A stretch of 64,000 nt of DNA from Ceratorhiza oryzae-sativae (lineage: Eukaryota > Basidiomycota > Agaricomycetes > Cantharellales > Ceratobasidiaceae): contig JARWMV010000053.1 in the NCBI GenBank assembly GCA_030998015.1, positions 1-64,000 on the forward strand. The letters are read 5' to 3'. This document shows, in pieces, positions 34,385 through 62,824 of this stretch. Position numbers and translations under genes: made by a program. The notes beneath the pieces were generated by a model that saw only the letters and a list, made by a program, of their open reading frames with translations, was not told the DNA's origin and ran no database searches. The stretch's first letter is position 1; the number at the start of each line of letters is the position of its first letter.

Positions 34385-34940
34385 TGTTGTGACCCTCTGG
34401 ACGCTTCCTTGTGAAGCACTTAAGTAGTGGCTGTGTTGACAGTTTGATGTTATGTGGTATGTATTGAGTGTTCTAGTTACAGTGTTTGCTATGGTCTATG
34501 GTGGTTGACAAGATAAAGCAAGCTGAGATGTCCAGTCTTGCTTTATCCTTCTTATATATGCCTGTGGCTGCGGTGGCTGTGGATGTATTATTTAAGCACA
34601 ATCTGCAGTAGGTACAGGTTATATACAGTACTATGGGTTAGGTAGTTGTTTATCTTAAGTTTGTGCAGCTCCAAATCTTATAGAGCTGTGTGAGGTCAAA
34701 GGGGTAAGCACTGAGGTCACATGATCCTGCTGTAAGTGCCAAGATCACATGATAACTTGCTCCTTGCTCCAAGTAACAATGGAGAGAAATGCTGGAGCAA
34801 GTTCAGGGTAACCACTGTAAGCACTGGTTAAGCACCAAGGTCATGTGACCTTGTTTATGGCTTGTTCTGCTTAGGAAAAAATGCCATAAATCTGTAAAAT
34901 ATTTGGTTACTCTGTTATGTCTGTTTGATGGGTCATAACA
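34385..34940 (-). repeat. 3' LTR of Ty3-A copy 2
   Basis: On the minus strand it starts TGTTATGACCC and ends GGGTCACAACA. The polypurine tract GGGGGGATAA directly precedes it (34941-34955). It differs from the 5' LTR mainly by C/T and G/A transitions, many at former CpGs. Confidence 0.95.
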
Positions 34941-35019
34941 TTATCCCCCCCTTTGGCCATGTCTTGGGGGACCTCAAGACATGATTTAGATCCTTTATGC
35001 AAAAGGAATCTCATCCACT

Positions 35020-35130
35020 GAGGAGGTTAAGGGCACTGGACTTGAACCAACAACCTTTCGGCTGATTCAGTATTGTTCGATGAGGTGAGGCTGAGTCAGG
35101 CTAGACCCCTTAACCTCTATGTTACATGAG
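35020..35130 (-). other. tRNA-like sequence, copy 2
   Basis: The B box GGTTCAAGTCC (minus strand, 35038-35048) lies in a block bounded by GAGGTTAAGGG and CCCTTAACCTC arms, as in copy 1. The A box is degraded. Its conserved place between Rep and the polypurine tract in both copies argues that it belongs to the element. Confidence 0.4.
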
Positions 35131-35284
35131 ATTGTTTTTTCTTTCTTTGTTGTGGAGGTTATCCAGGGGTGGGGAGTTGTCTGCTTCTTCTCAGAATGCC
35201 CCAACTGTTTTGGATGGGTGTAGCAGAAGTTGTTCCTTCATTTCCCTTTGGTTCTTAAGGTGTTGTACAATACAATAAATTACT

Positions 35285-35761
35285 CTAAGGGAATACAAAG
35301 AATGGTTTTCCTCCTGAGTACACCCATTCTACATTTTTCGATACCCATAAGTCCCCCTCTTCCCCCTCTATGTCTGACCAACACTTCATGATTGCTGATC
35401 AGCTATTTCCCAGAATAACTGTTGGCCATACCTTCATTGATTTCATGTGCATGTACCTGCCTGTGAAGTCCACCTCATACTGGCTCAGGGCCTTGAGCGA
35501 GTACTTCCTGTTTGACTGGACCATGTCGTCCAGGATCCAAATGTCAGTGTCTTCTGACAAGTTCCCCACATTCCACACATTGCATATTTGGCTGTGACAG
35601 CCCTTGGATTGTGCGTATGCTGTTTTCCCCATCCCAGTCTCTCCTTCTATCACCAGGATGCGATGGCGCACCCCTCTTCCCCTCTTCTTGACTTCCTTGG
35701 CAAACCATCTGTCTGCTTGGTCAATGTGCTCCCAGTCTTCCAGGACCTCTAACTCCACAGG
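35285..35761 (-). pseudogene. Rep-like gene of Ty3-A copy 2, C-terminal (helicase) part
   Basis: This is the SF3 helicase half of the Rep gene: Walker A with GETGMGKT near 35640, Walker B DIWILDDM near 35525, and motif C VILGN near 35410. A stop at 35399-35401 breaks the frame, after which recognisable C-terminal sequence continues to about 35285. The N-terminal half lies at 51824-52505; Ty3-B separates them with the duplication GATTG. Many former CpGs are TpG or CpA compared with copy 1. Confidence 0.85.
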
Positions 35762-35766
35762 GATTG

Positions 35767-36136
35767 TGTTGACAACAACAAGTCAGGCAATGAGGAAAAT
35801 AGAGAGAAAGAACTTGTATTTGACAAGAGGTCAAGTTCTTGAGGAGTCCTCAGTGAACTTGACCTGGTTTATATACATAGTACAAGCCACATCATAACAA
35901 ACAAGTCTGTACAGTGAGTCATGACCAATAAGAGATAGAAGCAATAGAAGCAACTGTGGAACTGTGGAATTTCACATCAAAGTTGAAATACATCTTGGTT
36001 ATTGGTCTGGACCATCTCCTGAATCACATGACACAGATATACCATAAAAGGCAAGTATGTTTTGAAAATGATCTCATAAAATGTAGTAAATCAAGAAAAT
36101 ATTATAGAGTGGATATATGCATGTCAGTTCATGACA
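35767..36136 (-). repeat. 3' LTR of Ty3-B
   Basis: On the minus strand it starts TGTCATGAAC and ends TTGTTGTCAACA. The polypurine run GAAGGGGGGAAG (about 36137-36148) precedes it. A full-length relative is the solo LTR at 15488-15846. Confidence 0.95.
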
Positions 36137-36290
36137 CTTCCCCCCTTCAAGGCACAGGGGTTGTGGGGTGCCTTTGGATGTGTCTTGACATAGTCAGCCA
36201 GTAGTTCTGGTGCATTTACCAGGTCGTTGTAGGTTAACCATTGTTGCTCGTCATAACCAAGCCATTTGACATAGTATTTGAAGATGTTAG
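36137..36290 (-). pseudogene. Ty3-B chromodomain, C-terminal remainder
   Basis: YYVKWLGYDEQQWLTYNDL is the core of a chromodomain, a histone-methyl-lysine reader that directs chromoviruses to heterochromatin. The N-terminal part (EFEVEQIIKSQ) lies at about 41880 in the integrase ORF. The 8-bp-TSD transposon at 36291-41850 separates them. The polypurine tract follows the end of this frame. Confidence 0.8.
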
Positions 36291-39200
36291 CAAGGGGTAG
36301 TGCTGAAATAAGTGCCCACCTGAGGTCTAGGTGGGTGGGTCCACTGAGGACCTGCCAATGAGTTTTTTCAGAATTTTTGTACCATATAAATATCACTTTT
36401 ATGGAACTATAAGATGTAATTACCGATTGATAACCAATTGCTAAACAAAGGTATTAATTCAACCACATGGCACACTATTGCGATACAATGGAGTAGTAAT
36501 AGATTTTTACAAAGGGATGGTGAAATCCACAGGTGTGGCTTGGGGCAGTTGCTTAAGGTATACTCAAGAGATGACAGGATGTCAGATTAAGTTTCCCCAT
36601 CTTGCTGGGTGTAAAAATGCCTGACAAAGTTAGTAACTCTCCTGACATCCTGAGGATCATTGATATATGTATATCAGAGCCCTAAATACACAGCCGACAC
36701 AAAGGTCCAGTGTCTGGATTGTAACGAGCTAGTTCATGTTTTGTTTCGTGGTCCTGTGGGCCTTGTTGAACATTGAGGGAAAGCTAAATGCCTGCTTGCA
36801 CAAGCTAAACAGTCCAAGGCAGAGAAAGACAAGAATCAGTCAACTCTGCTTTGTTTTGGAATTTCTTCTAGTACTAGAACTTTGGACACAGCCCACAGCT
36901 TGGTCTCTTCACTGCCAAAGCTTTCAACAGCTAATTCTACATTATCACTTAGCAGCTCTGGCATCAATCATTTGTCTGAGGAGCAGCGTTTGTGCTCTGA
37001 TGTCTTGCCCATGGATGGGCTATATGCTTCAGACACTATGCTACAGGATTCACACTTGGTAACGCCTCCCTTGACACACACTATTGAACTTGAAGACAGC
37101 GACGAAGAGATTATAGAAATAATGCTGCCACCTGTGACAGTGCTGAATAGCCCTGGTGCAAATGCTAGAACGATCTGAATGGCAGTTTCGCAGCCTTCCA
37201 ACACTATAAGCACCCATGCAGGTACTGTAGCTGCACATACACACTTTCCCTGCTCTTCATTCAGATGTAGGGGTATTACGTTTAGTTTTGCAAGTGGACA
37301 GAATCCCTTTTTGCATTATCCATACACTCTATGTGCTAGTCTCACTTTACCTTGGGGTTTTGAGGTTTGTAATCAACATATGACACTTTGTGCCAATGCT
37401 TGCACAAGTTTCTCTTCTGGCACACTAGCTCCTGGGTTGCTCACATGCGCTCCATGTGAAGCTTTGAATGGTTCTCAAGTACTTCAGGGAATCCAAGACC
37501 GCCTGACCACTGGAGGCCATGAGAACTCGTCCTGGCACTACCTATCAATGCATTCCTTACACAAGCTCCTTCAACAAAAAGCTAATCAGATTGATAGCTT
37601 TTGATCAAACAAACTGACTCAGGCTCATAAACTTGCATTGTGTGTACAGAATCTAGATGAACACAAGAAGTTCCTGGTAGCAATAGGAGCTGATCGTAGT
37701 GTACAGAGGGTAGGGGTGCTAGTTGCCATCGCAGTCAAGCATAAACTAGGAGTTAGAGGCATTATTGAACGCTTCTGGAAGGCAGCTAAGGGGCTTTATC
37801 ATCCAAAAGGATACTCTGATGAGGAGAAGATGAAGAGCCTTCTATTTTACCAATTAGGAGGTGTCCAAGTTGCCGATATTGCTCATCAAACTCTTGCACT
37901 CCCAGGAACATCGACCGTACACCAATATAAATTATCCTCAATGCTCAAGGCTTCTCCACAGAAACCTGCACCAAATGAGGTCAAACACAACCTCAATGAA
38001 AACTTTTGTGACCTTGCTTGTTTACTTGGCACTGAATCAGCCCCTGATTATATCCTCATGCTTGATGAGCTTAAGGTGGAGGAGCGACCCCGTTTAGATG
38101 CGGTAACTGGGAAAGTACTTGGAATATGCAGGGAACACAGAGACTGTGTCTCTTTATCAATAGATTCAGTACGGGAGCTTGAGCAGCTAGCTACTGCTGT
38201 CGATAACAAGGAAATCCATATTGCAACTGAGGTAATGTTATACCTGAGCAATCATGCGTTAAAGATCTAACCACCATTATTGACAGTGTACTGTTGCAGC
38301 AATTGGGCTGCTGACATCAGACAAGCGAATGTATGCAGCACATCCTATCATGATATCAGGGACATGCAAGCATGAAAAAGCAAGTGAACATACAAAGCTT
38401 ATCAGCACAGTTATTCAAGTCTGTAAGCGACTTGCTCCAAAACTTGGCCTTGGAGATCTTCTGTCTATCACGTCTGATGGCGAGGCATGCTGAGGGGCGT
38501 CAATCTCTGAACTCACTCTAGCTGAACCAATTCAACCTACTTCGGTGCTGTTTCCACTTCTCTCTGGGCTATGCTTATTCAATATGTTGGTTGGTGAACA
38601 TGAGCTTACAGGCAACAAAGATTATAAACATATCTTTAAGCGCTTGAGGAATCTTCTCATTGGCACACTAGGGACTTTTATTGATGGCATTCATGTTACT
38701 ACAGCAGTCTTACACCTGCATCTTTGTGACGGCAGTGTTTCAAAGACCCAAATTGACTATATGCTATGCCCTGACGACAAACAAGATGTCACACTTGCTG
38801 TTCAGCTCCTCCAGAGTGTTGCTAATCTACCTCCACCTGCCCAAGATGACAAACCAGCTTATGCACAAAGTAGGCGTGCATTGAACATACTGGGATTACT
38901 TGTAGATCTGATTATCAAGCTGTATACTGACATATCTTTGTCTCTTTCTACACAGCTAGAGAAACTCTCTTCCACAGTGCATTTGGTACTATGGCTATAT
39001 ACCTGCTCTTCTAAGTCTGCTCGCTTTTTGCCACTTCAGCTCTATGGAGACATAATGGTTATGATCAAGAACGCTTATATATGTTTTGCTAAAGCTAAAG
39101 TTAAGAATCCCCAGGGCTCATTCTGGTTGACGCTTCTGGGTATGGACTGCTTGGAAGCTGCTTTTGGGATTGTTAGAACAATGATCAGGAATGATGCAAA

Positions 39201-41850
39201 TGCTGATGTATTACAGCTGGCTAGTTGACTCTCTAGTGCAACAACCTGTGCTAATATCCTAGCTGAGCATCCTGAGTGGGATCGCGCACCCTGCTGTCTG
39301 AAGCTTCGCTCAGTTGACTCGTCTAGCATATCTGATACACCTACAGTAGACCACATAAGCCCAAGTGTCTGGAAGGGTGATTTATGTGTTGAAAATGTCC
39401 ACCCTCTTGCATGCTGGTGGAAAGGTCAACAGATACTTGGCAAACTCCTACCTGTTGCAATCGCATCTATTATAGAGGAAGACTTAGCAAAACTGGTGAG
39501 TAACGCTTCAGTGGACATCCTTGCGCCATTTGGTGAGCTTGTGATGAATTGTTCATGTGGGCCTGAGTCTCTAGAGATGGAGGTATCAGATGTTGACTAT
39601 GCTGGAGACCATGCTAGCAGCTCTTTGCCAACGCCTGTAGATCCTTCTCATCTCAATCTAGAAGATCTGGCTGGTACTGAACACACTGAAGAAACACCTG
39701 GTGCACCTTCGCCCTATCTCAAGCTGGATAATGGAGAAACAGTCCACAAAGCTTGGGTAATCAGCCAGCTTTTTTTCAACTCCAGGCGAAATTCCACTGA
39801 TTGCCTCAGCCGTGTTGCTGGATTATCCAAGTACGTGGTTTCAGCCAAGAGAACCAATTCATCTGGTATTATCAACCATGATTCAGCACTGGGAGAGCCT
39901 GTGCTCCATGTCAACGATCCTGCAGCCACCTTGCTTTGCTGTGGATCACATATATTTTTGGCTATCTTACAAATCAATCGACTTCAGTATGATGATATCT
40001 CGGTTCTCGAAATGACAACAGCTCGTTTGGGCAAGGCCATTGCTGATGCGACAGCTCAGATACTTTGTCTGGCTCTGTTTAGCATTTCTGTTTCTCAGGT
40101 GGCAAGTTCTGAGATAGACTGGAAGTGGACGCATAAATATGGTGCAGTGATCAAGATACCTGGTTGATTTATACAGCCAGTCAACCCTGCACTACTAGCC
40201 TCTGATACATGCACTGCTACGTATGTTTTCAGTACTAATGATCTCCTGGGAATTACTGCCTTGCTTGCCGACCAGTTATCGCCTAGAGATCTTTTGGAGC
40301 TCCCTCAAGTTGCTCAAACTGATTGTTTCCCTTACCTTCATGCCGGTTAGTCTCACTTCTATCAGAGCTTATGCATTATCTCAACTTTGTTGATACATTA
40401 CAGGTAAAGCATGCTTTGAGTATGAGCAAGAGGCAGACACTCATGATCCTAGTTGCACTCATGATCATAGTGCTTGCCCATCATGTATTTCTCCTGCTGT
40501 TCAGCTGAATTGGTCTAAGCCCCCACAAGTTCTTGAACACATGGGTGCTCACATCTTATTTGACACACTAGTTAACTGAGCTACTCAACCATGCAGGTTT
40601 TGCTTGCAGCCCTCTGCAAGCTGTCTGATCTTTTTGCTTCATAGGAAGGGCAAAGAAGCGAGCCTACAGATTGATCTGGCTTGGTCAAAGAGCTGCCCTT
40701 ATGCAACAAGGTTCTCTTACGAAGCTGCATCCCAGTCTAAACCAGCCTCCCCATGCTCAAATGTACCCCTGGTCTGCGATCTTTGCTCTCAAGATTCGCC
40801 TGCAATCTGGAGGTACAATTTTGAGGAGCACCTCAGAATTAGCCATCCTTTGGCTAATCAGAGCACATACATTGACCTATTTCGACTTTCAGAGTCAGAA
40901 ATTGCTGCCATGCAAATCACTTGGGATTGGTGTCAAACAGCCCCTTGACTTGCTTGAGGTAGGGTGGCTGGCCCTGAACTGGCAATATCCGAAGTGCACA
41001 GCTCTCACATGGTCTTACAGTCAGTAGGAATCAACCAGCTGTATGTCTATTACCTGATCAAAATAAGCAGAATGATTGAGCTGCCGAAAAGGGATGAACA
41101 AGTCACTGACAACCTGGATCAAGACCTGAATCATGAAAGTGCCACTTCAAGTGATGACGATGAAATACTGGATAAATACAGCATGGAAATCGATACAATA
41201 GATGGTATGTGCAGCCAACTCAGATCTTGTCATGTTTTAACTGGCTCCTACCATAAGATCCTATATCTATGTCGACCTCACTCTTTACTACAACTATAGT
41301 ATCAAATCGCAGCAGGCGCACAAGGAAACAATGACCCATATTGGATGAAATCACTGCATGTTATATGTGCAACATTAAGGTTACAGAGGAAGAGATTAAA
41401 GCAAACAAATTACCAGGCGCTGTTCCACAGGTGATGATGTGCAGTAACAGACACTGCAAAACAAAATGGGTATGTTTTTCAATAAGTGATGTATACTTAA
41501 TTCTGATAAGCTCTCAGTTTCATTTTGGTTGCTACAACTTCTCGTATGTTCCGAAGGATTGGGATTGCAGCGAGCATGGCAGTAATCATTCAACAGCTCA
41601 TAAACATTGAAAGATTGCTTAACACAACATCTTTTATTGCTTTTATTCTTTATGCATGGATTACTCTCTATGTACTATATGACACAGTTTTCTTTTAACT
41701 TGTGGTGCCATGGATAGTTGTCATGTGCATATATACCCGATTTGGACAGATTTATATGACATAATCTATCAGGGGGTGGGTGGGTGCTCTTAGCAGCTGA
41801 CTTCTCAAAATCCGACCTCATGCAGGAATTTTTTTTTCCACCACCCCTTG
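36291..41850 (+). mobile_element. 8-bp-TSD DNA transposon, copy 2 (inverted relative to copy 1)
   Basis: The ends CAAGGGGTAGTGC (36291) and inverted CAAGGGGTGGTGG (ending 41850) match the ends of 27186-32885. The flanks are GATGTTAG (36283-36290) and GACATTAG (41851-41858). These differ only by C-to-T and G-to-A changes at one CpG, so the original 8-bp duplication was probably GACGTTAG. The element is inserted in the Ty3-B chromodomain. Confidence 0.85.
36680..41600 (+). pseudogene. Candidate P-element-like transposase, decayed copy
   Basis: It aligns piece by piece with the gene at 27566-32568. Pieces include a zinc-finger start VQCLDCNELVHVLFRG near 36710, VGVLVAIAVKHKLGVRG near 37715, DYILMLDELKVEERPRLDA near 38050, GMDCLEAAFGIVRTMIRND near 39140, and a Cys-rich C-terminus (CDLC, CYMCN near 41365). 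In-frame stops occur near 36779, 37603, 38491, 39226 and 40166, and several are TGA in place of CGA. It lacks the 109-bp retroposed insert of the other copy. It is not functional. Confidence 0.65.
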
Positions 41851-41858
41851 GACATTAG

Positions 41859-42933
41859 ACCTTTTGTTGTATTGTGACTTTATGATCTGTTCCACTTCAA
41901 ATTCTTCTTCCCCTTCAGGAGTTACCACTGGTGGTGGTGGGGGAACCTGGCACCCATAAGGGTCGTCTTTATATTTAGTCAGGAGTGAAACATGAAATAC
42001 TGGGTGTATTTTCATGGTTATTGGCAAATCCAGTTTGAAGGCATGAGTGCCATGTTGTGCTACCACCTTGAATGGTCCAACTCTTTTGTGGGCCAGTTTC
42101 CTGGAGGCCTGTTGAGTCCTTATATTCCTGGTGTTGAGCCAGACTTTGTCTCCAACCTTGATAGCCTCTGGGGTCTGATGCTTCTGGTTGTAATATTCTT
42201 TGATCCTCTGGTTCAATATTTCCAATGCAGCCTTCAGTTCATCATGGCCCTTTTGAAGCCATTCTGCATGATTGTCTGCTACAGGAAGTTCTTGTTCCTC
42301 CTTGTCCCCAACTGCCAGCCTTGGATGGAAACCATAGTTGGCAAAGAATGGTGATTTGCCAGTTGAAGCATTGATGCCATTGTTGTAGGCAAATTCAGCC
42401 AAGGGTAAGAGTGAGACCCAGTTGTCTTGCCGATCTGATATGTAGTGTCTGAGGTACCCTTCTACTACTTGATTAGCCCTTTCAGACTGGCCATCTGTTT
42501 GGGGGTGATATGCTGTGGAGTAGGACAGTTTTGTATCCAACTGTTTGTAAAGGTGCCTTAAGAACTTGGATGCAAAGTTGGGGCCCCAGTCTGAAATAGT
42601 TTTCCTTGGCAACCCATGAAGTTTCCATATGTAAGTTAGGAACAGGTTTGTGCAATCCATGGCACTGGCTTCTGATTGACATGGAATAAAGTGGACCATT
42701 TTTGTCAGGTGGTCGACCACTGTAAATATGGCGTTGAACCCTTCTGACAGGGGTAACCCAGTGATTAGGTCATATGTGATTTCCTCCCAGGGCTTTTCCA
42801 GTGCAGGTATTGGGTTTAGAAGCCCTGGGGGAACTTGGTTGCTGTGTTTGTTCCTGATACAGGATTCACAATGTGTGACATATTCATTGACTGATTTTTT
42901 CATTGATGACAATGTATATTTGCGGTTTAACAA
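41859..42933 (-). pseudogene. Ty3-B integrase with GPY/F region
   Basis: The open frame begins at CESCIRNKH (zinc-finger end). It keeps the first Asp region ITYDLITGLPLSEG, the second in TISDWGPNFASKF and the Glu region QTDGQSERANQVVEGYL, so the D, D and E positions are all present. KRVGPFKV is the GPY/F module and EFEVEQIIKSQ begins the chromodomain. The frame then runs into the transposon at 41850. The upstream zinc-finger part (about 42934-43200) is out of frame. Confidence 0.85.
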
Positions 42934-43199
42934 TTAATATGTTCTGAACTGCCCTGGGTGTCCTGCTGCTGGGTTATCATGATGACTTTCGATGACCATC
43001 CTGCAAAGTTCCTTGTTATTTGGGACGTAGATTCAGCCCTTGTGTTGTAAAAGTCCTTCATCCCATTCCCAATTTTTGACCTTCTCATTATCATCTAAGG
43101 CTTTCAGCACTTTTGATAGGTGTTCGTCCCCTGGGATTGCATCCCTAATGAGTTGTTCCAGGTTGTGGTCTGGTGTGATTGCTTGTAACCACAAAGATT

Positions 43200-45030
43200 T
43201 TAGTTCCAAAAATTGGTTTGTGCAAGCAGAGCTTGGCTCTCACCCCCCTCTTTAGGGATGTGCCTTGACAGCCTAAAGAGTATGTCTGCCTGGCCATTCT
43301 TTGCCCCTTCAATGTATAGGATCTTGAATTTGAACCTGGACAGGAACTCATGCCATCGTGTGACTCAGCCATTCAGTGGCTGATTTGTTTTCCAATATTC
43401 CAAATTTTTGTGATCACAAACAATGTTTACTGGGTGTTCGGCCCCTTCTAGCAAGTGACACCAGTGTTTGAGGGCCTTTATAATTGCCAGCATTTCTGTT
43501 ATGGATCACTAACATTTTTCTATTAATTTAGTCTGCTCTGCCAACCTCAAGCGATGCCTCTGTAATTAAATTGTGAAATACTTGAATTTGTATGCACTCT
43601 CAATTGTACTATTTTCCGTTCCATTAAATAGTAAAAATTTCCCGCTCTCCAACGCATATTTTATTAAGTTTTTACGATAAGATCTCAGAGAGATACAGAG
43701 GTTGCGATATTTCCTCTTATCAGGAGATATTGATTACAACATCGCACCGCTCATATCTCGGCAACCGCTTACCCTATCAAAGCGATCTTGTGCTCTATCG
43801 ATAGCTAATCTTCGGCGGTATCTGCTGCCCGAAGATCGTCGCGATCCACCGGATCCTCGCGCCGGAATGGCCCGAAGATCATTAGAATCTTACTGGACCA
43901 TCAGTCAAGATCTAATGACTCCAGTGAGTCAGGAGAGCTTCCCAAATTGATCCAGAAGCTTCTCTGACTCACCTTATGACTCACTGAGATGTAGCCTCCG
44001 TTCATTACATGTATATACTATGATAATATGATCTACAAGCCAATAGCAGGTCTCAGATGCATCAATGTCTTCGATCCACACCCTGTCTTTACTCTCTTAT
44101 CCTATACTGGGCTAGGGTGTACCCCAAGTATAGCAGTACTCTCTTTTGATGATCGCACTGGCATGCATGCATCTATTTGGCTCTGGAATGCCCTCCTCAG
44201 GGTATAAAAGGACCTCCTCTGAGGCCCTTCCAGACCACCTCCTTCCCTCCTCTACTCAACCCAGACCAGTTATTGGTTTCTTTTTCTCTTTCTATTTTTC
44301 TATTGTCTGTGTGTGATTTCTTATATAACTAGTACTGAGGAATAAAGTACCATATTAGTTATATACTGTCTGAGTCATTGTATCTTATATACAGAGATAT
44401 ATAAGGATACAATATTGCCTGATTGAGCATGACATAAAGTACCAGCTATTAGAGGAAATCTAAGTACCTGTAGCTGAGGAAGTACATGCATTAGGCAGCC
44501 CACCATCTATCCTATAAGCTATCACTTAAGCCTAGTATTAAGATTAGTATCAGTTAGTCCAAGCGACTAGGGCTGAACTACATTTAAGATATCTAAGGGA
44601 ACCTGACCATAGTAGTCTTGCTCTTTATACCTATAAATTAGTCAGTTTACACTGTGAAAGATTAAGACTACCTTGAGTGTTACTTGATTGCATTGCAACT
44701 ACTTTGAGCCTTCTTACTCTAGTCTAAGAAGTATTGAGTATGATTAGTGTATACTAACATATCTACATTTGCTTAAGCTCTAGATATTCAAGTGTACCCT
44801 GACCCGTAACAATTTCTTTGTTGTAGATATCATAGTTCCTTTCTGCTGGGACCATGGCTTTGGAATAGTAGGAGATTGGGTGGAGCATTCCATCTTCTCC
44901 ATATTGTAGCAGTACAGCACCTGTAGTGTAGCCCGAGGTGTCTGTTTCCAGGATGAATGGTTTACTGGGCTCTGGCTGAATTAGGAGAGGGGCTTCCTTT
45001 AGTTTTTGCTTTAGTAAGTTCCATGCTCAA
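43200..45030 (-). pseudogene. Ty3-B RNase H, split by a solo LTR
   Basis: FILETDTSGYTTGAVL (near 44960) is the RNase H start with its first catalytic Asp. It continues to the insertion point near 44817 and resumes at 43496 with [11 protein letters not shown] and [13 protein letters not shown] interrupts it near 43370. Confidence 0.8.
43497..44811. repeat. 1.3-kb solo LTR (LTR-C family), copy 1
   Basis: The plus strand begins TGTTATGGATCAC and ends GACCCGTAACA, giving TG...CA termini. The perfect 5-bp duplication ATTTC flanks it (43492-43496 and 44812-44816). No coding frame is seen. A CpG-richer core lies at about 43690-43880, including CGATCCACCGGATCC. A TATA-like GGTATAAAAGG occurs near 44200. 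It could be a solo LTR or an LTR-shaped non-autonomous element. A second copy lies at 55114-57374. Confidence 0.85.
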
Positions 45031-46145: not shown

Positions 46146-46166
46146 AACATAGGCACCAAGAGATTC

Positions 46167-49650: not shown

Positions 49651-49656
49651 GATATA

Positions 49657-51446: not shown

Positions 51447-51448
51447 GA

Positions 51449-51818: not shown

Positions 51819-51823
51819 GATTG

Positions 51824-53702: not shown

Positions 53703-54632
53703 TCATATGGGGGCTGGTTCCAACAGTGGCACCTCCTCCAGAGCTTTGACAAGCTTATTTTCCCACTGGTCCCAGTCCTGTTTGGCTCCCTCAACAGCTG
53801 GGTCCGGGGTGGGTTCCTTTATTGCTGGCTTTGCTTCTTCCTCAGCAACAACCAGTGATTCTAGGCTCAACATAAGGCTTGTCATGTCTGTGTTGTAATT
53901 GGTGTTTTTGTTTGGGTGCACCTTCACCCAATTTTGGAAGTTGCTCATGTTTGCCTGCTTTGTCCTGATAGCAGTAAACATTTCATCAGTGGTAGTTGCT
54001 TCAAGCAGTCCCACATATGGTGCAGCCAGTGTCAACTTCCACTCTTCCAACAATGCCTTGGCCTGGCACTCCACCTCCCAGTCCCCCCCATCTGCCATTT
54101 GGCCTGAGGCCCTCCTCTGTTGTCTTGCTGCTGCGGCCACCACGTCGACTGTTGGTCCCATGATATCATCAATGATGTACATCAGCATTCTTAGCAAGGT
54201 GTTTCTTGTTGTTGGCTTCCAGCTTCCATGCCATATCAGGACCCCTAACCTGGGATCCAGGTACTTGTCATCGTCGATCCAGTTCCTTTCATCCCTTAAC
54301 TTCTTTGGGATGTACACTAGGTTAGCCCCTGGCAACAGTCGCTTGGTGTACCTCTGGGTGTTGTCCACACTAGAGCAATACATCCCTAGTTTAGGATGAT
54401 TTTCCCTGCCAGGGTAGGGTGCTGGCCACCTAGTGGTGGGTGGCTGCCAAAGTGGGGCCACCTGATTTTCAATGAGTGGTATGTAACGGTTGGGATGTGC
54501 AACTGGGTGAGTGATGAAAGGCATGTTTTGAGACTTTGCAGGTGTATTGTGGTGCAAGTGTGGTGGTAGAGCGGGCTCTGGCCTTTCTTGGGTATCCTGG
54601 ATGGCTCTTTTTAAAGCTTTCCAGATCCTCAT
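53703..54632 (-). CDS. ORF X: accessory protein after the chromodomain, unknown
   Basis: This is a 309-codon open frame directly after the integrase/chromodomain ORF. Its ATG (54632-54630) overlaps the preceding TGA (54631-54629) as ATGA, which would suit termination-reinitiation. Visible features are a Pro-rich N-terminus, PGANLVYIPKKLRDERNWIDDDKYLDPRLG, a likely helical segment LLRMLMYIIDDIMG, and acidic C-terminal stretches. No signal peptide or membrane segment typical of an envelope protein is seen. It is convergent with ORF Y, with 78 bp between their ends. No family is recognised. Confidence 0.55.
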   Translation of the reverse strand: MRIWKALKRAIQDTQERPEPALPPHLHHNTPAKSQNMPFITHPVAHPNRYIPLIENQVAPLWQPPTTRWPAPYPGRENHPKLGMYCSSVDNTQRYTKRLLPGANLVYIPKKLRDERNWIDDDKYLDPRLGVLIWHGSWKPTTRNTLLRMLMYIIDDIMGPTVDVVAAAARQQRRASGQMADGGDWEVECQAKALLEEWKLTLAAPYVGLLEATTTDEMFTAIRTKQANMSNFQNWVKVHPNKNTNYNTDMTSLMLSLESLVVAEEEAKPAIKEPTPDPAVEGAKQDWDQWENKLVKALEEVPLLEPAPI

Positions 54633-55132
54633 TTGGTTCTCTTTGGCCTGCCTTTTGAGTCATCTGAGGATTGACTTGTCTTGACTGGCATTGGTGCATC
54701 TGGTAAGCACCTTTGCAAGTCATTTAGAACCTCTTTTATGTCAGCAAACTTGCTGGCACATTCCATTGTGTGTTCTATTGGGTCATAGCCCTTCCATCTG
54801 ATTTGGTAAAACAGCTTGCCATTCCACCATTCATAATTTGCAATGTGGTCCACCTCATACTCCTCCTCTCCTTCTTCCATTATGATTGGTGGTGGTTTGG
54901 CCTGCCTTCTTTGGAAGTCTTTATCTTCTGTGAATGGCAAGAGGAGATTCACATGGAATATGTTGTGTATGCATATGGTTTTAGGTAGGTCCAGGTGATA
55001 CACATGGGATGAGATCTTCTCTGTGATTTCAAAAGGGCCCCCTTTTTGGTTGTCCAATTTCTTGGAGGGTCTCTTGGACGAGAGGTTAGTTAGGAGCAGC
55101 CAAACCTTGTCTCCATTATGGATCACTAACAC
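54629..55132 (-). pseudogene. Ty3-A integrase C-terminus with GPY/F and chromodomain
   Basis: GDKVWLLLTNL and KGGPFEIT form the GPY/F module. EEYEVDHIANYEWWNGKLFYQIRWKGYD is a well-kept chromodomain, followed by a basic tail ending KGRPKRTK. The rest of the integrase lies beyond the solo LTR at 55114-57374. Confidence 0.9.
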
Positions 55133-57374
55133 TTTTCTATTATTTTAGTCTGCTTTGCCAACCTCAAGCAATGCCTCTGTAATTTTCTTGATATTAAATG
55201 AATTTGTATGTGTCTGAATTGGTACTATTTGTGTTCCATTAAATAGTACAAAATCTCTTCTTTCCAACGCATATTTTATCGTGATTTTATCTTAAGAACT
55301 CAGAGAGATATAGAGGTTGCGATATTTCCTCTTATCAGGAGATATTGATTACAACATCGCACCGCTCATATCTCGGCAACCGCTTACGCTATCAAAGCGA
55401 TCTTATGCTCTATCGATAGCTAATCTTCGGCGGTACCTGCTGCCCGAAGATCGTCGCGATCCACTGGATCCTCGCGCCGGAATGGCCCGATGATCATTAG
55501 AATCTTACTGGACCATCAATCAAGATCGAATGACTCCAGTGAGTCAGGAGATCCTTCCAAATTGATCCAGAAGCTTCTCTGACTCACTTTATGACTCACT
55601 GAGATGTAGCCTCCATTAATTACATGTATATACTATGATAATATGATCTACAAGCCAATAGCAGGTCTCAGATGCATCAATGCCTTCAATCCACACCCTG
55701 TCTTTACTCTCATATCCTATACTGGGCTAGGGTGTACCCCAAGTATAGCAGTACCCTCTTTTGATGATCGCACTGGCATGCATGCATCTATTTGGCTCTG
55801 GAATGCCCTCCTCAGGGTATAAAAGGTCCTCCTCTGAGGCCCTTCCAGACCACCCCCATCAGCAAAAATGGTTTTTCCATGCAAGAGCTTTGGGAAAACA
55901 ATATGTAATAACAGAGCTTGAAAGACAAGCAAAGACTCTGTGAGTTGTTGAAATAGCTTTAAATATACTGCAATACATGCCCATGTTTTGGATGTCTTGA
56001 AATTTGGTCAAATGTCTTGAAGTGTCTTTGAGTGTCTTTGAATGTCTTTAGGTGTCTTTGAGTGTCTTTGAGTGTCTTTGAGTGTCTTTGAGTGTCTTTG
56101 AGTGTCTTTGAGTGTCTTTATAGAGGTCAAGTGTCTTCAGGTGAATGGACCACAATATCCTGACTATCTATAACAGGTTGTGATTACTCCTCTTTTGGCT
56201 AATTTCAAATTTACCATGTATGGAAATCCAAAAAATTAATGATTTTTGTAATTTTTGTGGCTACAACTTTCCTTTTTGGGGAAATTTCAAATTTGCCAAA
56301 TAAGGTAAGTATACCCCAAATCTGTCATCAGAATGATCAATCTCCTCATCCAACCATCCATTTTGTGTCCCCTTGTTGCCAAAGCCACTATATGCTATAA
56401 AATACCCCTTAGTGATGAGTAGTGTGCCCTTCTCATGCATGTGCTACATCACAACTAAAAGCTGAGACTTGCTGTGTCAGCAAGTCAGTGTCAGCAAGTC
56501 AGCATGATTACATAAGTCAAGCCCAGGGTTGTTTGAAATTGGTTTCAAGCTGTTATTGTGTGCTTGCAAGGTATTGCAAAGCATTCCAAGATTAAGTATA
56601 CTGACTTGAGGGATCCCAGTTGGTTTTCAAGACACTCAAAGATGCTTAAAGACACCTCAAGACATTCAAAGACACTCAAAGACATCTCAAGATAGGCCAT
56701 GTTTTGAAAGAGCTTTAAAAGGGGGTATATGTATTTGGTGTCTTTAGTGTCTTTAAGGTCTTTAAACATCTTGGAGGGCCTTTAAAGGAAATTTCATTTT
56801 TGCTGATGCCTCCTCTACTCAACCCAGACTGGTTATTGGTTTCTTTTCTCTTTCTATTTTTCTCTTGTCTGTGTGTGATTTCTTATATAACTAGTACTGA
56901 GGAATAAAGTACCATATTAGTTATATACTGTCTGATTCATTGTATCTTATATACAGAGATATATAAGGATACAATGTTGCCTGATTGAGTGTGACATTAA
57001 GTACCAGCTATTAGAGGAAATCTAAGTACCTGTAGCTGAGGAAGTACATGCATTAGGCAGCCCACCATCTATCCTATAAGCTATTGCTTAAAGTCTAGTA
57101 TTAAGATTAGTATCAGTTAGTCCAAGTGACTAGGGCTGAACTACATTTAAGATATCTAAGGGAACCTGACCATAGTAGTCTTGCTCTTTATACCTATAAA
57201 TTAGTCAGTTTACACTGTGAAAGATTAAGACTACCTTGAGTGTTACTTGATTGCATTGCAACTACTTTGAGCCTTCTTACTCTAGTCTAAGAAGTATTGA
57301 GTATGATTAGTGTATACTAACATATCTACATTTGCTTAAGCTCTAGATATCCAAGTGTACCCTGACCCGTAACA
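55114..57374. repeat. Solo LTR (LTR-C family), copy 2, with nested CATCAG element
   Basis: It aligns with 43497-44811 over its full length once the nested element 55857-56808 is removed. The right end is GACCCGTAACA; the left end reads CATTATGG where copy 1 has TGTTATGG. The flanks GTCTC (55109-55113) and GGCTC (57375-57379) match at four of five positions. It interrupts the Ty3-A integrase. Confidence 0.85.
55857..56808. mobile_element. Non-autonomous CATCAG element, copy 3
   Basis: The 952-bp element has the same termini as the copies at 7888 and 10679 and a 2-bp duplication CC (55855-55856 and 56809-56810). Comparison with the uninterrupted LTR-C copy near 44245 supports the insertion point. 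It is 12 bp longer than copy 2, which equals one unit of its 12-bp array; six GAGTGTCTTT units run in a row near 56058-56120. Confidence 0.9.
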
Positions 57375-57379
57375 GGCTC

Positions 57380-59375
57380 CTACCTTGAATTCCTTCCCTT
57401 TCTTTTCCATTTGTTGGTGTAATTCCATTGAGGCTCTTGCCTCATCCCATACCTTTTCCATTTGATTATGCATGCTGTCTGCAGTGGGTGCCTCAGACGG
57501 TTCTTCCCCCTCTCAGACAACCCATCTTGGTTTTTTTCCATATACTGTTTCAAACAGGGTTTGTCCTGTTGTAGCGTTTATGTGGTTGTTATGGCAGAAT
57601 TTGGCAATGGGTAACCATTTTACCCAATCATCTTGTCTATAATTGCAGAAGGTTCTTAAGAACCCTTCTACCCATTGATTTGTTCTTTCCGACAGTCCAT
57701 CCAGAAATGGATGGAAGGCAGTGGAGAATCTGGGCTTTGTCCCAATTCCCTTGTATAGGGCCTTTAGGAATTGGCTGTTAAAGGTTGGCCCTCAGTCTGA
57801 GACAGTGGTTTCTGGTGTCCTGTGATGTCTCCATACCTCCCTTATGAATATTTCTGCCAGTTCTTCTGCATTGGTGCTCTCCAGACATGGTACAAAATGG
57901 GCCTGCTGGGAGAAGCAATCTACAACTGTCAAGATGCTGTTGTACCCTTTTGAGACAGGTAATTTGACAATGAAATCATATGCAACATCTGCCCATGGTT
58001 TCCACAGGATTGGTAAGGGCTTCAGGGGAGCGCCTTGTTTGTGTCCTTTGCTCCTTTGACATGTTTCACAAGATTCCACATATTGGTTTACGTTTACTTG
58101 GGCCTTCATTCCTGGCCAGTAGTAATCCCTTGATAGTAACTCTAGTGTTCGGGCTTGTCCCTGATGACCCACCACAGGGGTATCATGGCACTCCTCAAGG
58201 AGGCTCAACCTCAAGTCCTTGTCATCTGGGATGTAGAGCCTATTGTCATACCTTAATAGGCCCTCCTTCATTTCATACTGTCTAAATTCCTTTTGTACTG
58301 AGGGCAGTAGTTGTTCTTTATTTGCCACACTCAGCCTTAAGGATCTGATAGATTCATCTTCTTCCTGAGCTTCTTTAAGCTCCTCCCAGAAGTTCCCCTG
58401 TACCTCTGCCTTGAAACCTATGAACCTTTCTTCTGGAATCATGATCTGTGGTTCCATAGGGGTGTCCCCATGGTCACTCCTCCTGGAAAGGGCATCTGGC
58501 TTCTGTGAGAGTTTCCCTGGTCTATACACAATCTGAAAATTGAAGGGTGCCAGAGTGAGATACCATCTGGCATGCCTTCTATTCCACATCTGGGCATTTT
58601 GCCAGTACTGGAGGTTCCTATGGTCGGTGTATATCACAATAGATTCCTCTGTCCCTTCTAAGTATAACCTCCAGTGCTCTAAGGACCTAACAATTGCAAG
58701 CAACTCCTTGTCGTAGGTGTCATAATTTTTCTCTGGTGGGGTGAAGCTCTTCGATAGGAAGGCAATTGGATGCAATTGGTTGTCATCACCCTTTTGGCTT
58801 AGTACTGCCCCCATGGCCACTCCTGAGGTGTCTGTTTCCAGTATGTATGGCTTGTTTGGGTTTGGGTGGATTAAGACCAGTTCTCTTGCTACTGCTTCTT
58901 TAATAGCTTCAAATGCTTCTTGTTGTTTTCCCTCCCACAGGAATTTGATGTCCTTTTGAGTGAGATCTGTGAGGGGTTTGGCTAAGGTGCTAAACTTCTC
59001 TATCCACCTTCTATAGAACCCCATGAAGCCTAGGAATGCTTGGACTTCTTTTACTCTTTTAGGTTCTGGCCATTCCAGGACTGCCTTTACCTTTACCTTT
59101 TCCATTGATATCCCTTCTGGGGATATGACAATTCCAATGAAGCTTACCTCCTTCACAAAGAACTGACACTTGTGTGGTTTGAGGAAGAGGTGGTTTTCCC
59201 TCATTCTTCTTAACACTTCCCTGACATGTTGTACATGTTCTTCCCTGTTTCTGGAAAACACTAGTACATCGTCCATGTAGATTACCATGTAATCATCTAT
59301 TATGTCACAGAACTTTTCCATCATGAACCTTGTAAAGGTTCTTGGTCCTTCTTTTACTCCAAATGGCATGACCAA
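57380..59375 (-). pseudogene. Ty3-A RT (3' part), RNase H and integrase core
   Basis: The open frame 59375-57792 starts MVMPFGVKEGPRTFTRFM. It contains MVIYMDDVLVFS (RT catalytic), ETDTSGVAMGAVL (RNase H), the zinc-binding CETCQRSKGHK and integrase first-Asp region VAYDFIVKLPVSKG. It reaches the second catalytic Asp in TTVSD, then a TGA at about 57792. Beyond the stop, sequence with the third-residue region DGLSERTNQWVEGFL continues to the LTR-C insertion at 57374. Confidence 0.9.
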
Positions 59376-59798: not shown

Positions 59799-60296
59799 TC
59801 AGAAACCTTCTTCCCCAAACAGGTCTTCAAAATCCCTAAATTCTTCTGGGATTTGTAGGCTTTCACTTGCTGCCCTTGCCTTGATTTCATCTGGGTATGA
59901 GATGGTAAGGTCTTTCCAATCTATGATAGGTTCTGCCTCCTCAAGCCATTCTTTCCCTAGGACTATGTCTGTGTTGCCTAGGGTCATTACATAAAGGGAG
60001 CATTTCAGTGTCTTCCCTTCCACTTCAATATTTAGTTCTGCCCTTTCTTCTATGGCATCCTTGATTTCATTTCTATCAATGGCCATGATTGATTTCTTGT
60101 GTTTGAGGGGAGTGGTCTGGATCCCTTTTTCCCTTGAATAGGCCTTATCAATGAAGTTGGTTGAAGATCCTGAGTCAATCAGTGTCTTTGCTGGTTCCAT
60201 GATTCCCTCTACTGTAGTGTATATTATTGATTGATTACTAGATTTCTTGAGGTAACATACATCTGCGGTAGGGGTTATATCAGGGTCCTCCAACAT
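59799..60296 (-). pseudogene. Ty3-A aspartic protease region
   Basis: TLIDSGSSTNFIDKAY carries the DSGS active site, followed by NTDIVLGKEWLEEAEPIIDW, typical of the protease-RT linker in Ty3/gypsy elements. A stop lies after DLFGEEGF. Confidence 0.85.
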
Positions 60297-60400
60297 GGAA
60301 GTGGTAGGACCAATTAGTTTTCTGACTTGGAGCTGCTTTCTTCTTCAACTTGTCTGCTGGCCTTCCCTTGTATCTTAGCTTTGTCATAGGTCCACTGGCC

Positions 60401-62148
60401 TCAGCAGTCCTTCAGGACATGCCCTGATTTACCACATTTGATACAGAGTCCTTCTTTCCTTTGCCTGTCTTTTTCACTGTTTGGTATTCTTACCACGTTG
60501 TTAGTTTGGGTTTTCCCCCATTTGCCACTGGTCCCTGAAGGCTTGTTCCCCCCTTGTTTGTATTTTGCTGGTGCCCAGGTTGAATTTGATGAGTTGCTGG
60601 TCCTTGCATTCATTTTCTGGTTTGCAAACTGCATGTCATCCATTTTGCAGGCAAAGTTGATTAGTTGATCTAGGGTATATGATGGACCTTCAGCCTCATT
60701 TGCCAGTACTTCAATCCTTACGATCTCTTGTCGTACTTTGGGTTTTAACCCTTCCCTGAATTGGTCCTTGAGGGCTTCCTGGTTCCAGTCTACCTCTTGG
60801 ATCAGGATCCAGAATTGGGTAGCATAATCCAATGCACTCTTGGTTTGTGTTAATTTCCTTAGCTTCTGGATGGTCTTTTCTTTTATGACTGGGTCATTAA
60901 AGGCATCCAGGAATCCCTTCCTGAAATCCTTCCAGGATGCAAGGATCCCTGTGCATTTGCCTGCTAGTAGTTTCCAGCAGTAAGGTTGTGCCCAGTTTGC
61001 TGCTTCCCGTCCTCCATGTTCATTAACACAGCAGATATCTTTTTTTGGTTGTCAAAGGCTGATTCGTCATAGTCAGCAAAGAAAAGTTCCATGCCGATTA
61101 TGAAGTTCTCTGCTTCCTTCCCCTTTTTCCCATTAAATTTGCTGGGTCTCCCTAGTCGCACCTCCTTAGGAGTGTGGTTTGCAGCAAGGGTAGGTTGGTT
61201 TGCTTGGGATGGAGGTTCTGTTTGGGGTCTTATTGTGGACTTGGCCTGGAAGGTTCTTCCCAGAAAGGGTGTTCATACCAGGGAGGCTGAGGGGGATTGT
61301 GAGGGGCTTCCTATGACTACCCTAGTTCTTCCTGTGGTCTCTTCTGTCCTTTCCCTCAGCCTTCCTGCTTCAGTTGTTTTCTGGAGCTCATTTCCTAGAT
61401 TGGTTACCTGTTGTTCTAGTGCGGTCAGGATCTCCCCTGTGTTTTCAGTTTTCTTCTCTAAGCTTTCAAGCTTTCGCTCTTGCATTCCCAGTACCTGGTT
61501 CATTTCCATGGAGATGTCCTTTAATTCTTTTATCAGGTTCCCCATTTCTGCTTTTAGGTTGTCCTGGTTCTTTGCCACATAGAGGACATTTCTGTTGGAT
61601 GTTTCCATTGATCTTACCATCCAGTCCACATTTCCTTCTTGCTGTGTTAGTGATATTTGACACTGATTTATACTCATGATTGCCTTTTCTAGTTCCCTAT
61701 GGTTATTGTCTCTAAGTTCCTTGAGCCCCACCCTGATGGTGGTGGCAATGGTGTGAATAGGGTTGGCAGTGGTTACAGCTCCAGAACCTGGCTGGGGTTG
61801 TGTCCTTGCCTCTTCTGCCAAGGCCATGCCTTGTTTGTATATGGTTCGGGTGATATCTTCTACCTCATCCCTCTCTGGATTTGAGATATCTTCTGGGTCT
61901 GGATTTATCAGGAGAATTGGTGGTTGAGGGCTGCAGAGCAGTATTCCCCCTATTTGCCCTCCCAGGATGGGGGCCCAAGTGGGGTTAGGTTGAGCCACTG
62001 GTCGTGGATTTTGTTGCAACCCCCCTGGCATTCCTTGGAGGGTTTCATCTGGGTTACCTTCAGCTTCTGGGGGAGTAACAGGTTTGGGTGATTGTGGTCT
62101 ACTATTTGCCACTCTGCTTTGAGATCGAGTTTGTGGTCTCTGTGACAT
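60401..62148 (-). pseudogene. Ty3-A gag
   Basis: The first frame (62148-61273, 291 codons, start MSQRPQTRSQSRV) has a Pro-rich N-terminus and a coiled-coil region (LEKKTENTGEILTALEQQVTNLGNEL). The capsid region continues at 61161-60964 (RPSKFNGKKGKEAENFIIGME) and 60832-60401 (YATQFWILIQEVDW, FREGLKPKVRQEI). It ends in the zinc knuckle CIKCGKSGHVLKDC. Two frameshifts or stops separate the pieces. Confidence 0.85.
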
Positions 62149-62254
62149 AGTTTCTTTGTGTTCTCTTATGAATCACAGGAGTTAGCTGGTTTCTCATGTA
62201 CTCAGCCCTTAGTATCTGTGTAGTATACTTATGTTTGCCACTAGTTAAGTTAAG

Positions 62255-62266
62255 AGCTTGCTTTAT
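62255..62266 (-). other. Ty3-A self-priming primer binding site
   Basis: AGCTTGCTTTAT (plus strand, two bases from the LTR edge) is the exact reverse complement of ATAAAGCAAGCT at 62397-62408 in the 5' LTR. The LTR segment lies 28 nt after the TATA box (62436-62442). This matches self-priming as in Tf1 rather than tRNA priming. Confidence 0.65.
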
Positions 62267-62268
62267 AA

Positions 62269-62824
62269 TGTTGTGACCCTCTGGACACTTCCTTGCAAAG
62301 CACTTAAGTAGTGGCTGCATTGACAGTTTGATGTTATGTGGTATGTATTGAGTGTTCTAGTTACAGTGTTTGCTATGGTCTATGGTGGTTGACTAGATAA
62401 AGCAAGCTGAGGCGTCCAGTCTTGCTTTATCCTTCTTATATACACCTGTGGCTGCGGTGGCTGTGGATGTATTATTTAAGCACAATCTGCAGTAGGTACA
62501 GGTTATATACAGTACTATGGGTTAGGTAATTGTTTATCTTAAGTTTGTGCAGCTCCAAATCTTATAGAGCTGTGCAAGGTCTGAGGGGTAAGCACTGAGG
62601 TCACATGATCCTGCTGTAAGCGCCAAGATCATGTGACAACTTGCTCCTCGCTCCAAGTAACAATGGAGAGAAATGCTGGAGCAAGTTCAGGGTAACCACC
62701 ATAAGCACCAGTTAAGCACCAAGGTCACATGACCTTGTTTATGGCTTGTTCTGCTTAGAAAAAAATGCCATAAATCTGTAAAATATTCGGTTACTCTGTT
62801 ATGTCCGTTTGACAGGTCATAACA
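62269..62824 (-). repeat. 5' LTR of Ty3-A copy 2
   Basis: This 556-bp LTR starts on the minus strand TGTTATGACCTG and ends GGGTCACAACA, with GTAGG outside. It carries a TATA box and GTCACATGACC/ATCATGTGAC palindromes in U3. Confidence 0.95.

What the first reader, a model, noticed from the sequence alone, without database searches (positions are those of the whole stretch)
34385..62824. A Ty3/gypsy retrotransposon family that carries a CRESS-virus-like Rep gene
Two 556-bp LTRs with a shared 5-bp duplication (GTAGG) bracket gag, pol, a chromodomain and, before the polypurine tract, a Rep with HUH, YxxK and SF3 helicase motifs in the same orientation as pol. LTR retrotransposons replicate through RNA and double-stranded cDNA. 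A rolling-circle initiator on board could act on extrachromosomal DNA circles, or could be passive cargo. Endogenous geminivirus-like reps in fungi are known, but I know of no described LTR element that carries one as a stable module.
Basis: partly seen in the sequence, partly recalled or inferred. Interest (0 to 1): 0.95.

Follow-up and report, generated by a model that had tools for sequence, protein, structure and literature searches.

The report
Retrotransposon with built-in viral Rep
In a genome that is likely fungal, a common "copy-and-paste" jumping gene carries, between its own genes and its far end, a gene predicted to encode the rolling-circle starter enzyme (Rep) of small circular DNA viruses; it sits at the same place in most copies checked and its protein sequence has been kept by selection, so the element would own tools for two ways of copying DNA.

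Summary
Window 34385-62824 (minus strand) is a Ty3/gypsy element: two 556-bp LTRs, 5-bp duplication GTAGG, gag, pol, chromodomain, then a Rep-like gene before the polypurine tract (PPT). A second LTR element (35767-51818, duplication GATTG) is nested inside Rep; in the window's other copy (1-2653) no insertion splits Rep. The genome holds 142 exact PPT-LTR junctions; of the 100 places listed, 87 have Rep just upstream on the same strand, mostly at one distance; both controls 0 of 100. Of 24 compact two-ended elements 23 carry Rep; of 40 pol hits 37 do. Two Rep sublineages differ strongly at silent sites, little in protein: purifying selection. Named homologs are all from Ceratobasidium. A 12-nt primer site complementary to the LTR suggests Tf1-like self-priming. 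The Rep call rests on six collinear motifs and a weak geminivirus-domain match; Pfam cut-offs, PDB sequence search and AlphaFold gave no support. No canonical origin in the spans scanned and no rolling-circle trace was found, so action on extrachromosomal DNA is inference. Viral genes in LTR elements and Reps in other transposons are known; eight literature searches aimed at it listed no LTR element with Rep.

The parts
62269..62824 (-). 5' LTR, 556 bp (TGTTATGACC...GGGTCACAACA)
   Evidence: 94.4% identical to 34385-34940; GTAGG outside
62825..62829 (.). target-site duplication GTAGG (element 5' side)
62397..62408 (-). predicted self-primer AGCTTGCTTTAT in the LTR, starting 34 nt after the start of TATATAAG
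   Evidence: exact reverse complement of the PBS, in both window LTRs
62255..62266 (-). predicted primer-binding site ATAAAGCAAGCT, 2 nt after the 5' LTR
   Evidence: LTR-PBS junction 20-mer found 74 times in the genome, control 0
61273..62148 (-). gag-position ORF, 291 aa
   Evidence: ORF; no Pfam match over cut-off
59799..60296 (-). aspartic protease
   Evidence: Pfam RVP_2 1.8e-10
57792..59375 (-). reverse transcriptase (C-terminal part in this frame), RNase H, integrase zinc-binding domain
   Evidence: Pfam RVT_1 118-205/205, RT_RNaseH, Integrase_H2C2 over cut-offs
54629..55144 (-). integrase C-terminus: Tf2-1-like SH3 domain and chromodomain
   Evidence: SH3_Tf2-1 7e-17; Chromo 0.001, below cut-off
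53703..54659 (-). ORF318, unknown protein between chromodomain and Rep module
   Evidence: 0-3 stops in each of 20 copies compared; no Pfam match
53040..53624 (+). antisense ORF (194 aa), divergent from Rep
   Evidence: 3 homologs, all Ceratobasidium; P0087 is RhiLY_09190 and the Rep homolog P0055 is RhiLY_09191, so likely neighbours
52735..53039 (.). intergenic region with CACGTG-type boxes and a tandem unit present once or twice; likely two-way promoter
   Evidence: boxes of this type also in the LTR, one in Rep, none in RT, gag or ORF318; extra unit in 10 of 21 aligned copies
51819..52505 (-). Rep N-terminal part (HUH nuclease motifs and part of the middle region)
   Evidence: tblastn to P0001 residues 48-275; DNA probe: 172 candidates in the genome, 40 scored
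35288..35766 (-). Rep C-terminal part (SF3 helicase: Walker A, B, motif C)
   Evidence: tblastn to P0001 residues 267-429
35767..51818 (.). nested LTR element inside Rep, ~359-bp LTR repeats, duplication GATTG at 35762-35766 and 51819-51823; no Rep of its own found
   Evidence: tblastn of P0001 and P0008 against the window
34941..34954 (-). polypurine tract AAAGGGGGGGATAA
   Evidence: PPT-LTR 24-mer found 142 times, control 0
34385..34940 (-). 3' LTR, 556 bp
34380..34384 (.). target-site duplication GTAGG (element 3' side)
635..1774 (+). Rep of a second, B-type element, 379-residue stop-to-stop frame
   Evidence: all six motifs
2058..2071 (+). PPT of the second element
2072..2648 (+). 3' LTR of the second element (about 78-79% identical to the window LTRs)

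Best explanation
This is a roughly 10-kb Ty3/gypsy LTR retrotransposon family, predicted to prime itself as Tf1 does, that carries as a standing gene a predicted CRESS-virus-type Rep (HUH nickase plus SF3 helicase), which would likely act on the element's own extrachromosomal DNA. Shown: LTRs, duplication, pol domains, a primer site complementary to the LTR, PPT, Rep at one place in most copies checked, and purifying selection on Rep between two sublineages. Inferred: Rep came from a geminivirus/genomovirus-like replicon before the Ceratobasidium lineages split; it is made from an internal two-way promoter that it shares with the antisense ORF; the enzyme nicks and unwinds double-stranded DNA forms of the element (linear cDNA or LTR circles) and so raises their number or keeps them available for integration. 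RNA-based copying by reverse transcriptase remains the route that spread the family. The 3' half with Rep has been swapped between elements, most simply by template switching (inferred).
For: Place: 87 of 100 listed PPT junctions, 76 of 79 26-mer distances within 1074-1148 bp, controls 0 of 100 and 0 of 100; 23 of 24 compact elements; 20 of 20 Rep loci read followed by the same 3' segment, 17 with the chromodomain upstream in the stretch; 37 of 40 pol hits. Selection: transversions at fourfold sites 0.156 against 0.020 and 0.012 at codon positions 1 and 2 between sublineages (28 rows). Catalysis: HxH and YxxK kept in 29 of 29 rows that cover them, the Walker-A lysine in 28 of 29; six motifs in order, 0 of 20000 shuffles. 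Origin: Gemini_AL1_M at E 0.001 in P0008, profile positions 11-106 of 107, lying between motif III (131) and Walker A (270-277), which it runs into. Recombination: A-type ORF318 followed by B-type Rep (L035/L073; C253 and C26 by coordinates).
Against: No Pfam match over cut-off for Rep; PF08283 and PF00799 searched over the whole genome do not find these loci (neither rang in the control genomes); no PDB sequence relative; both AlphaFold models failed (pLDDT 34 and 41). No nonanucleotide of the TANTATTAN type in the intergenic region (0 of 21) or 3' gap (0 of 29, 7 of them cut short). No shared-LTR tandem among 54 of the 74 PBS and 100 of the 142 PPT junctions and no exact LTR-LTR junction (one hit with 2 mismatches). 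Most A copies read carry stops or lost motif residues. No expression or circle data were on hand. In Ceratobasidium sp. AG-Ba the Rep's location inside LTR elements was not seen.
Confidence: 0.5

Rival explanations
1. Rep is a weapon against competitors: it binds or cuts the origins of circular DNA mycoviruses (or hinders their Rep), so the element protects its host and itself.
For: Rep is conserved and virus-like; authors of the Pao-chuvirus study suggest an antiviral role for some captured viral genes (passage of PMC7642597).
Against: Nuclease motifs are kept, which a mere blocker would not need. No CRESS mycovirus relative turned up: protein searches, which need shared 5-residue words, gave only Ceratobasidium and unnamed or metagenome proteins, and the viral-contig scan gave none.
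Confidence: 0.2
2. Rep works in integration or host replication: it nicks chromosomal targets or recruits host replication factors for cDNA completion, without any rolling circle.
For: No origin motif in the spans scanned and no rolling-circle traces; Rep sits behind an integrase with a chromodomain-like end.
Against: Insertion hallmarks of the window copy look ordinary for an integrase (5-bp duplication, TG...CA ends); integrase itself is present.
Confidence: 0.15
3. Rep is passive cargo that is carried along by retrotransposition.
For: Many copies have stops or CpG-type losses; among A copies the codon pattern is nearly flat.
Against: Between sublineages fourfold-site transversions exceed second-position ones about 12-fold; two derivatives of 4.9 and 5.0 kb between exact junctions, about 4 kb shorter than the rest, still hold Rep (their interiors were not read).
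Confidence: 0.1
4. The protein is not a Rep but an unrelated P-loop protein with look-alike motifs.
For: No profile or structure match over curated cut-offs.
Against: All six motifs in order and spacing, 0 of 20000 shuffles; Gemini_AL1_M over almost its whole length at the right place in several homologs.
Confidence: 0.05

Closest known systems
Tf1/Tf2/Tj1 group of self-priming Ty3/gypsy elements (Schizosaccharomyces)
   Same: Tf2-1-like SH3 domain; PBS complementary to a stretch of the LTR at the likely RNA start, as described for Tj1 and Tf1 (passages of PMC4600332)
   Different: carries ORF318, an antisense ORF and Rep after pol, none of which is named in the Tj1 figure legend read
Terminons (rotifer Penelope-like retroelements with Rep)
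   Same: a retroelement that can hold a rolling-circle Rep; the review says this may point at circular intermediates (passages of PMC6431247)
   Different: Terminons are telomeric Penelope-like elements; here LTRs, integrase and a fixed Rep position
Geminivirus-like Rep transposon of Tuber melanosporum
   Same: a multicopy fungal mobile element with a geminivirus-like Rep (passages of PMC3198968)
   Different: described with terminal inverted repeats, transposase ORFs and no obvious target duplication; here an LTR retrotransposon
Anakin (mosquito Pao elements with chuvirus glycoprotein)
   Same: an LTR element with a captured virus gene, in many copies (passages of PMC7642597)
   Different: captured an envelope-type gene, not a DNA replication gene
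Geminivirus/genomovirus Rep
   Same: six motifs in order; Gemini_AL1_M similarity
   Different: very divergent, in a retrotransposon, no canonical origin found in the spans scanned

Membership tests
Ty3/gypsy LTR retrotransposon | two LTRs with target duplication | tested here: met
Ty3/gypsy LTR retrotransposon | PR-RT-RNaseH-integrase order | tested here: met
   ORF coordinates
Ty3/gypsy LTR retrotransposon | place in an RT tree | not tested
   no RT tree was built
Chromovirus | chromodomain at integrase end | tested here: inconclusive
   Chromo E 0.001, 19.5 bits, cut-off 25.1
Tf1-like self-priming element | PBS complementary to the start of the element RNA | tested here: inconclusive
   12 of 12 nt complementary in both window LTRs, 34 nt after the start of a TATA-like box; the RNA start itself was not observed
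CRESS-virus Rep | HUH motifs I-III and SF3 Walker A, B, motif C in order | tested here: met
   12 of 30 homologs of 360 aa or more fit the strict pattern, 18 do not
CRESS-virus Rep | match to a curated Rep profile over cut-off | tested here: not met
   best Gemini_AL1_M 19.5 bits, cut-off 24; so it is called Rep-like and not filed in a virus family
CRESS-virus Rep | HUH and SF3 folds | tested here: inconclusive
   AlphaFold pLDDT 34 and 41
CRESS-virus Rep | stem-loop origin with nonanucleotide | tested here: not met
   0 of 21 intergenic regions, 0 of 29 3' gaps, 7 of these cut short; coding regions and LTRs not scanned
CRESS-virus Rep | nicking, joining and helicase activity | not testable with these tools
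   needs purified protein
Terminon | Penelope-like RT, telomeric, no LTRs (in part recalled) | tested here: not met
   LTRs, Ty3-type RT-RNaseH-integrase domains present
Tuber Rep transposon | terminal inverted repeats and transposase | tested here: not met
   the element's ends are LTRs with a 5-bp duplication; pol domains found

The most novel reading that the evidence does not exclude
An LTR retrotransposon with two replication engines: it spreads through RNA and reverse transcriptase, and its own CRESS-type Rep runs rolling-circle amplification of its circular DNA between rounds, so that one element bridges retroelements and ssDNA replicons.
Probability: 0.25. Interest if true: 0.95.

Novelty: new variant of a known kind. 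Interest (0 to 1): 0.82.

Why it matters
LTR elements are known to capture envelope genes; a DNA-virus replication initiator kept under selection inside one suggests that extrachromosomal DNA of a retrotransposon can be a replicating stage, not only a by-product. It gives a direct, countable system (142 exact 3' junctions in one genome, Rep relatives in other Ceratobasidium) in which the old question whether LTR circles ever serve a purpose can be tested, and a route by which Rep genes of circular DNA viruses become endogenous.

Tried and rejected
Structure prediction of Rep from two family alignments failed (tickets and polls; 86, 89, 92, 96, 99, 102); no fold search was run on such models. 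PDB profile searches gave only chance-level matches. A viral-contig scan with the family alignment gave 90 pattern matches and no relative; a degenerate Walker-A scan gave 2 contigs, L076 and L077, which I did not study apart from their inclusion in the motif count. NCBIfam gave nothing of use. ARAGORN (bacterial code setting) and Rfam did not support a tRNA in the tRNA-like stretch before the PPT. My first dN/dS run wrongly put the B-type reference in group A, grouped correctly, replaces it. NG86 ratios (Rep N-part A-B 0.20, antisense ORF 0.27, ORF318 0.19 with a single B row) are affected by CpG decay (81% of Rep A-A differences lie in CpG/TpG/CpA context), so I rely on transversions; by that measure the antisense ORF signal is weak (fourfold 0.044, position 1 0.016, position 2 0.038; two B rows). 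I considered that Rep is a separate transposon sitting in two elements: rejected. Lower DNA identity of Rep than of RT looked like absence of selection at first; CpG context accounts for part of it (81% of A-A differences in Rep, 46% in RT).


Full report
What is there. The window is G000:C53:1-64000 of an unnamed 48.8-Mb genome in 253 contigs. Its Rep homologs with an organism name are all from Ceratobasidium; the others are unnamed, mostly metagenome, proteins (56 proteins, 86, partly the same). So the host is likely a Ceratobasidium-type fungus; this is inference. The outer element on the minus strand has 556-bp LTRs (94.4% identical), duplication GTAGG, gag-position ORF, protease, RT-RNaseH-integrase, Tf2-1-like SH3 domain and a weak chromodomain, then ORF318, an antisense ORF, Rep, PPT and the 3' LTR. 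It is enlarged by a nested LTR element that went into Rep with duplication GATTG (35767-51818) and by a ~952-bp repeat. The window's first 2.65 kb hold the 3' end of a second copy whose Rep is not split by an insertion.

Self-priming. Two bases after the 5' LTR lies ATAAAGCAAGCT, the exact reverse complement of AGCTTGCTTTAT at LTR position 417-428 in both window LTRs, 34 nt after the start of TATATAAG. This is the arrangement described for Tf1 and Tj1 (passages of PMC4600332). The exact 12-mer occurs in 16 of 20 Rep-locus stretches, not all in the family's own 3' LTR. The LTR-PBS 20-mer occurs 74 times in the genome (control 0). The RNA start was not observed.

Is Rep a stable module? Yes. (b) 142 exact PPT-LTR junctions exist; of the 100 places listed, 87 have a known Rep 0.3-2.5 kb upstream on the same strand (Rep places from the capped lists, so a lower bound); 76 of 79 26-mer distances are 1074-1148 bp, the others 1780-2457; opposite strand 0 of 100, downstream 0 of 100. 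Of the 13 without, the window's own is displaced by its nested element, five more have a listed Rep 7-21 kb upstream, seven have none listed within 30 kb. Conversely 79 of 91 exact Rep 26-mers in that range have an exact PPT 0.3-2.5 kb downstream, 12 do not. The 26-mer has 157 hits in the genome at up to 2 mismatches, control 0. (c) Of 54 PBS junctions in the comparable contigs (74 in all), 38 pair with a PPT within 40 kb; of the 24 pairs under 12 kb, 23 hold Rep (three of these, the rest from the 26-mer); the exception is C190. Two of the 23 are only 4.9 and 5.0 kb between junctions; their interiors were not read. (d) Of 40 pol hits: 10 have Rep by the window, loci read or coordinates; 29 were sampled at the expected offset, 22 gave Rep at once, 5 more hold it displaced (C232 and C241, L073 and L074, and C15 by coordinates only), 2 gave none in about 5.5 kb read each (L049/L063, L053/L065); 1 ran off its contig. 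So 37 of 40.

Two sublineages and exchange. A-type Rep is 88-92% and B-type mostly 83-86% identical to the window copy, B copies 93-95% to the B probe (top 40 of 173 candidates). Pol hits of both kinds are about 96% identical to the window (e.g. C233:1279752, whose Rep is L061, B-type). ORF318 is 90-93% in A loci and 72% and 68% in the two B loci seen (L034; L062). L035/L073 joins A-type ORF318 to B-type Rep, and C253 and C26 do so by coordinates. Hence the 3' half is exchanged. In the Rep tree (48 rows) the 20 A and 8 B rows of this genome form one supported group (100/100); the AG-Ba, other named Ceratobasidium and metagenome rows each form one group; rooting is at the midpoint only. Many rows are decayed copies with X at stops, and L024 is a long branch.

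Selection. Between A and B, transversions per site are 0.020, 0.012 and 0.085 at codon positions 1-3, 0.156 at fourfold sites; in the two shifted frames the excess moves with the true third position. Within A the pattern is nearly flat, with 94% transitions and 81% of differences in CpG/TpG/CpA context, i.e. decay after insertion; CpG-biased mutation is described in Rhizoctonia solani AG8 (passages of PMC4014442). HxH and YxxK are kept in 29 of 29 rows that cover them, the Walker-A lysine in 28 of 29 (L024 is scrambled there; L020 has an altered motif I). Other motif residues are lost in many A copies, typically D to N, T to M, S to L and G to R, as CpG decay would give; B copies keep the motifs better (mean off-majority 0.039 against 0.117 in A). 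Stops: 18 of the 20 A loci have at least one in frame against P0001, L026 and L032 none.

Is it a Rep? Motif I LTWSKL, II LHVHAL, III YLWKDVG, Walker A GETGTGKT, Walker B IWILDDM, motif C VILGNS stand in the order and roughly the spacing of geminivirus Rep (motif names and spacing recalled, not looked up). A strict pattern for all six hits 5 of 102 frames of 250 aa or more in the DNA held, all at Rep loci, 0 of 20000 shuffles of P0001, and 12 of 30 homologs of at least 360 aa; 18 do not fit, among them models with other N-termini or internal gaps in the alignment. Gemini_AL1_M matches 8 of 37 members weakly, best P0008 (E 0.001) and P0030 (0.0045), between motif III and Walker A and running into it, below Pfam's cut-off. 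Against: no match for the window frames, the whole-genome family searches miss these loci, no PDB relative, failed models. I hold the Rep call as very likely but not proven.

The antisense ORF. A 194-residue frame opposite to Rep has three homologs, all Ceratobasidium, at 35-43% identity; P0087 is RhiLY_09190 and P0055, a Rep homolog, is RhiLY_09191, so the pair is likely adjacent in AG-Ba. Most copies have one stop inside the window's frame, and selection on it by transversions is weak. Between it and Rep lies a ~300-bp region with CACGTG-type boxes; such boxes also occur in the LTR, one in Rep, none in RT, gag or ORF318. A shared two-way promoter is inferred.

Mechanism. Rep that keeps nuclease and helicase residues must, if active, work on DNA. 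In an LTR element the available DNA is linear cDNA and its circles. I therefore favour Rep acting on the element's extrachromosomal DNA. Results against a rolling circle: no nonanucleotide in the non-coding spans scanned, no tandem sharing an LTR among the junctions compared, no exact LTR-LTR junction (one hit with 2 mismatches). These do not exclude it, since chromosomal copies would come from integrase.

Novelty. Passages read show Reps in rotifer Terminons (PMC6431247), in a truffle transposon (PMC3198968), and envelope-type capture by LTR elements (PMC7642597). Eight full-text searches aimed at the question listed no LTR element with Rep by title or abstract start; several found more papers than they listed (for instance 292 found, 25 listed), and subscription papers are mostly not in that library. 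Two more searches were aimed at Terminons and self-priming. All other papers were seen as search listings only.

Noticed in passing
1-2653: 3' end of a second, B-type element on the + strand with a 379-residue Rep frame and an LTR about 78-79% identical to the other
   Followed up: yes
55857-56809, 7888-8828, 10679-11619: Three copies (98-100% identical) of a ~0.95-kb repeat with inverted ends CATCAGCAAAAAT...ATTTTTGCTGATG; looks like a young non-autonomous DNA transposon
   Followed up: partly
35767-51818: Nested LTR element with its own gag/RT/integrase-like ORFs (by eye), which itself holds a 1.3-kb stretch 93-97% identical to 55116-57374 of the outer element (43499-44811) and a Tc1/mariner-like ORF (49942-50886, by eye)
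   Followed up: no
28661-32473 and 37461-40257: Two copies, opposite in orientation, ~71-80% identical in pieces, of a large ORF-bearing repeat, perhaps a transposase gene
   Followed up: no
about 35040-35140 (-) and 1875-1980 (+): tRNA-like stretch between Rep and PPT (complementary ends GGTTAAGG/CCTTAACC and GGTTCAAGTCC), one of the better conserved parts of the gap between A and B; ARAGORN (bacterial setting) and Rfam negative
   Followed up: partly
P0022, P0048, P0050, P0056 (metagenome homologs): An in-frame insertion of about 24 residues between ...GLVAR and RFEAF that looks like an unspliced intron; if so, Rep mRNA would be spliced in that lineage
   Followed up: no
about 34955-34985 (-): Short inverted repeat CATGTCTTG...CAAGACATG just before the PPT, varying at one or two pairs between copies
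   Followed up: no
L013-L032, LTR positions 119-237: Some LTRs carry extra tandem copies of this internal segment
   Followed up: no
L076, L077: Two viral contigs matching a degenerate Walker-A pattern; not studied
   Followed up: no
2652-3710: Copia-like gag-pre-integrase/integrase frames directly beside the second element (by eye)
   Followed up: no
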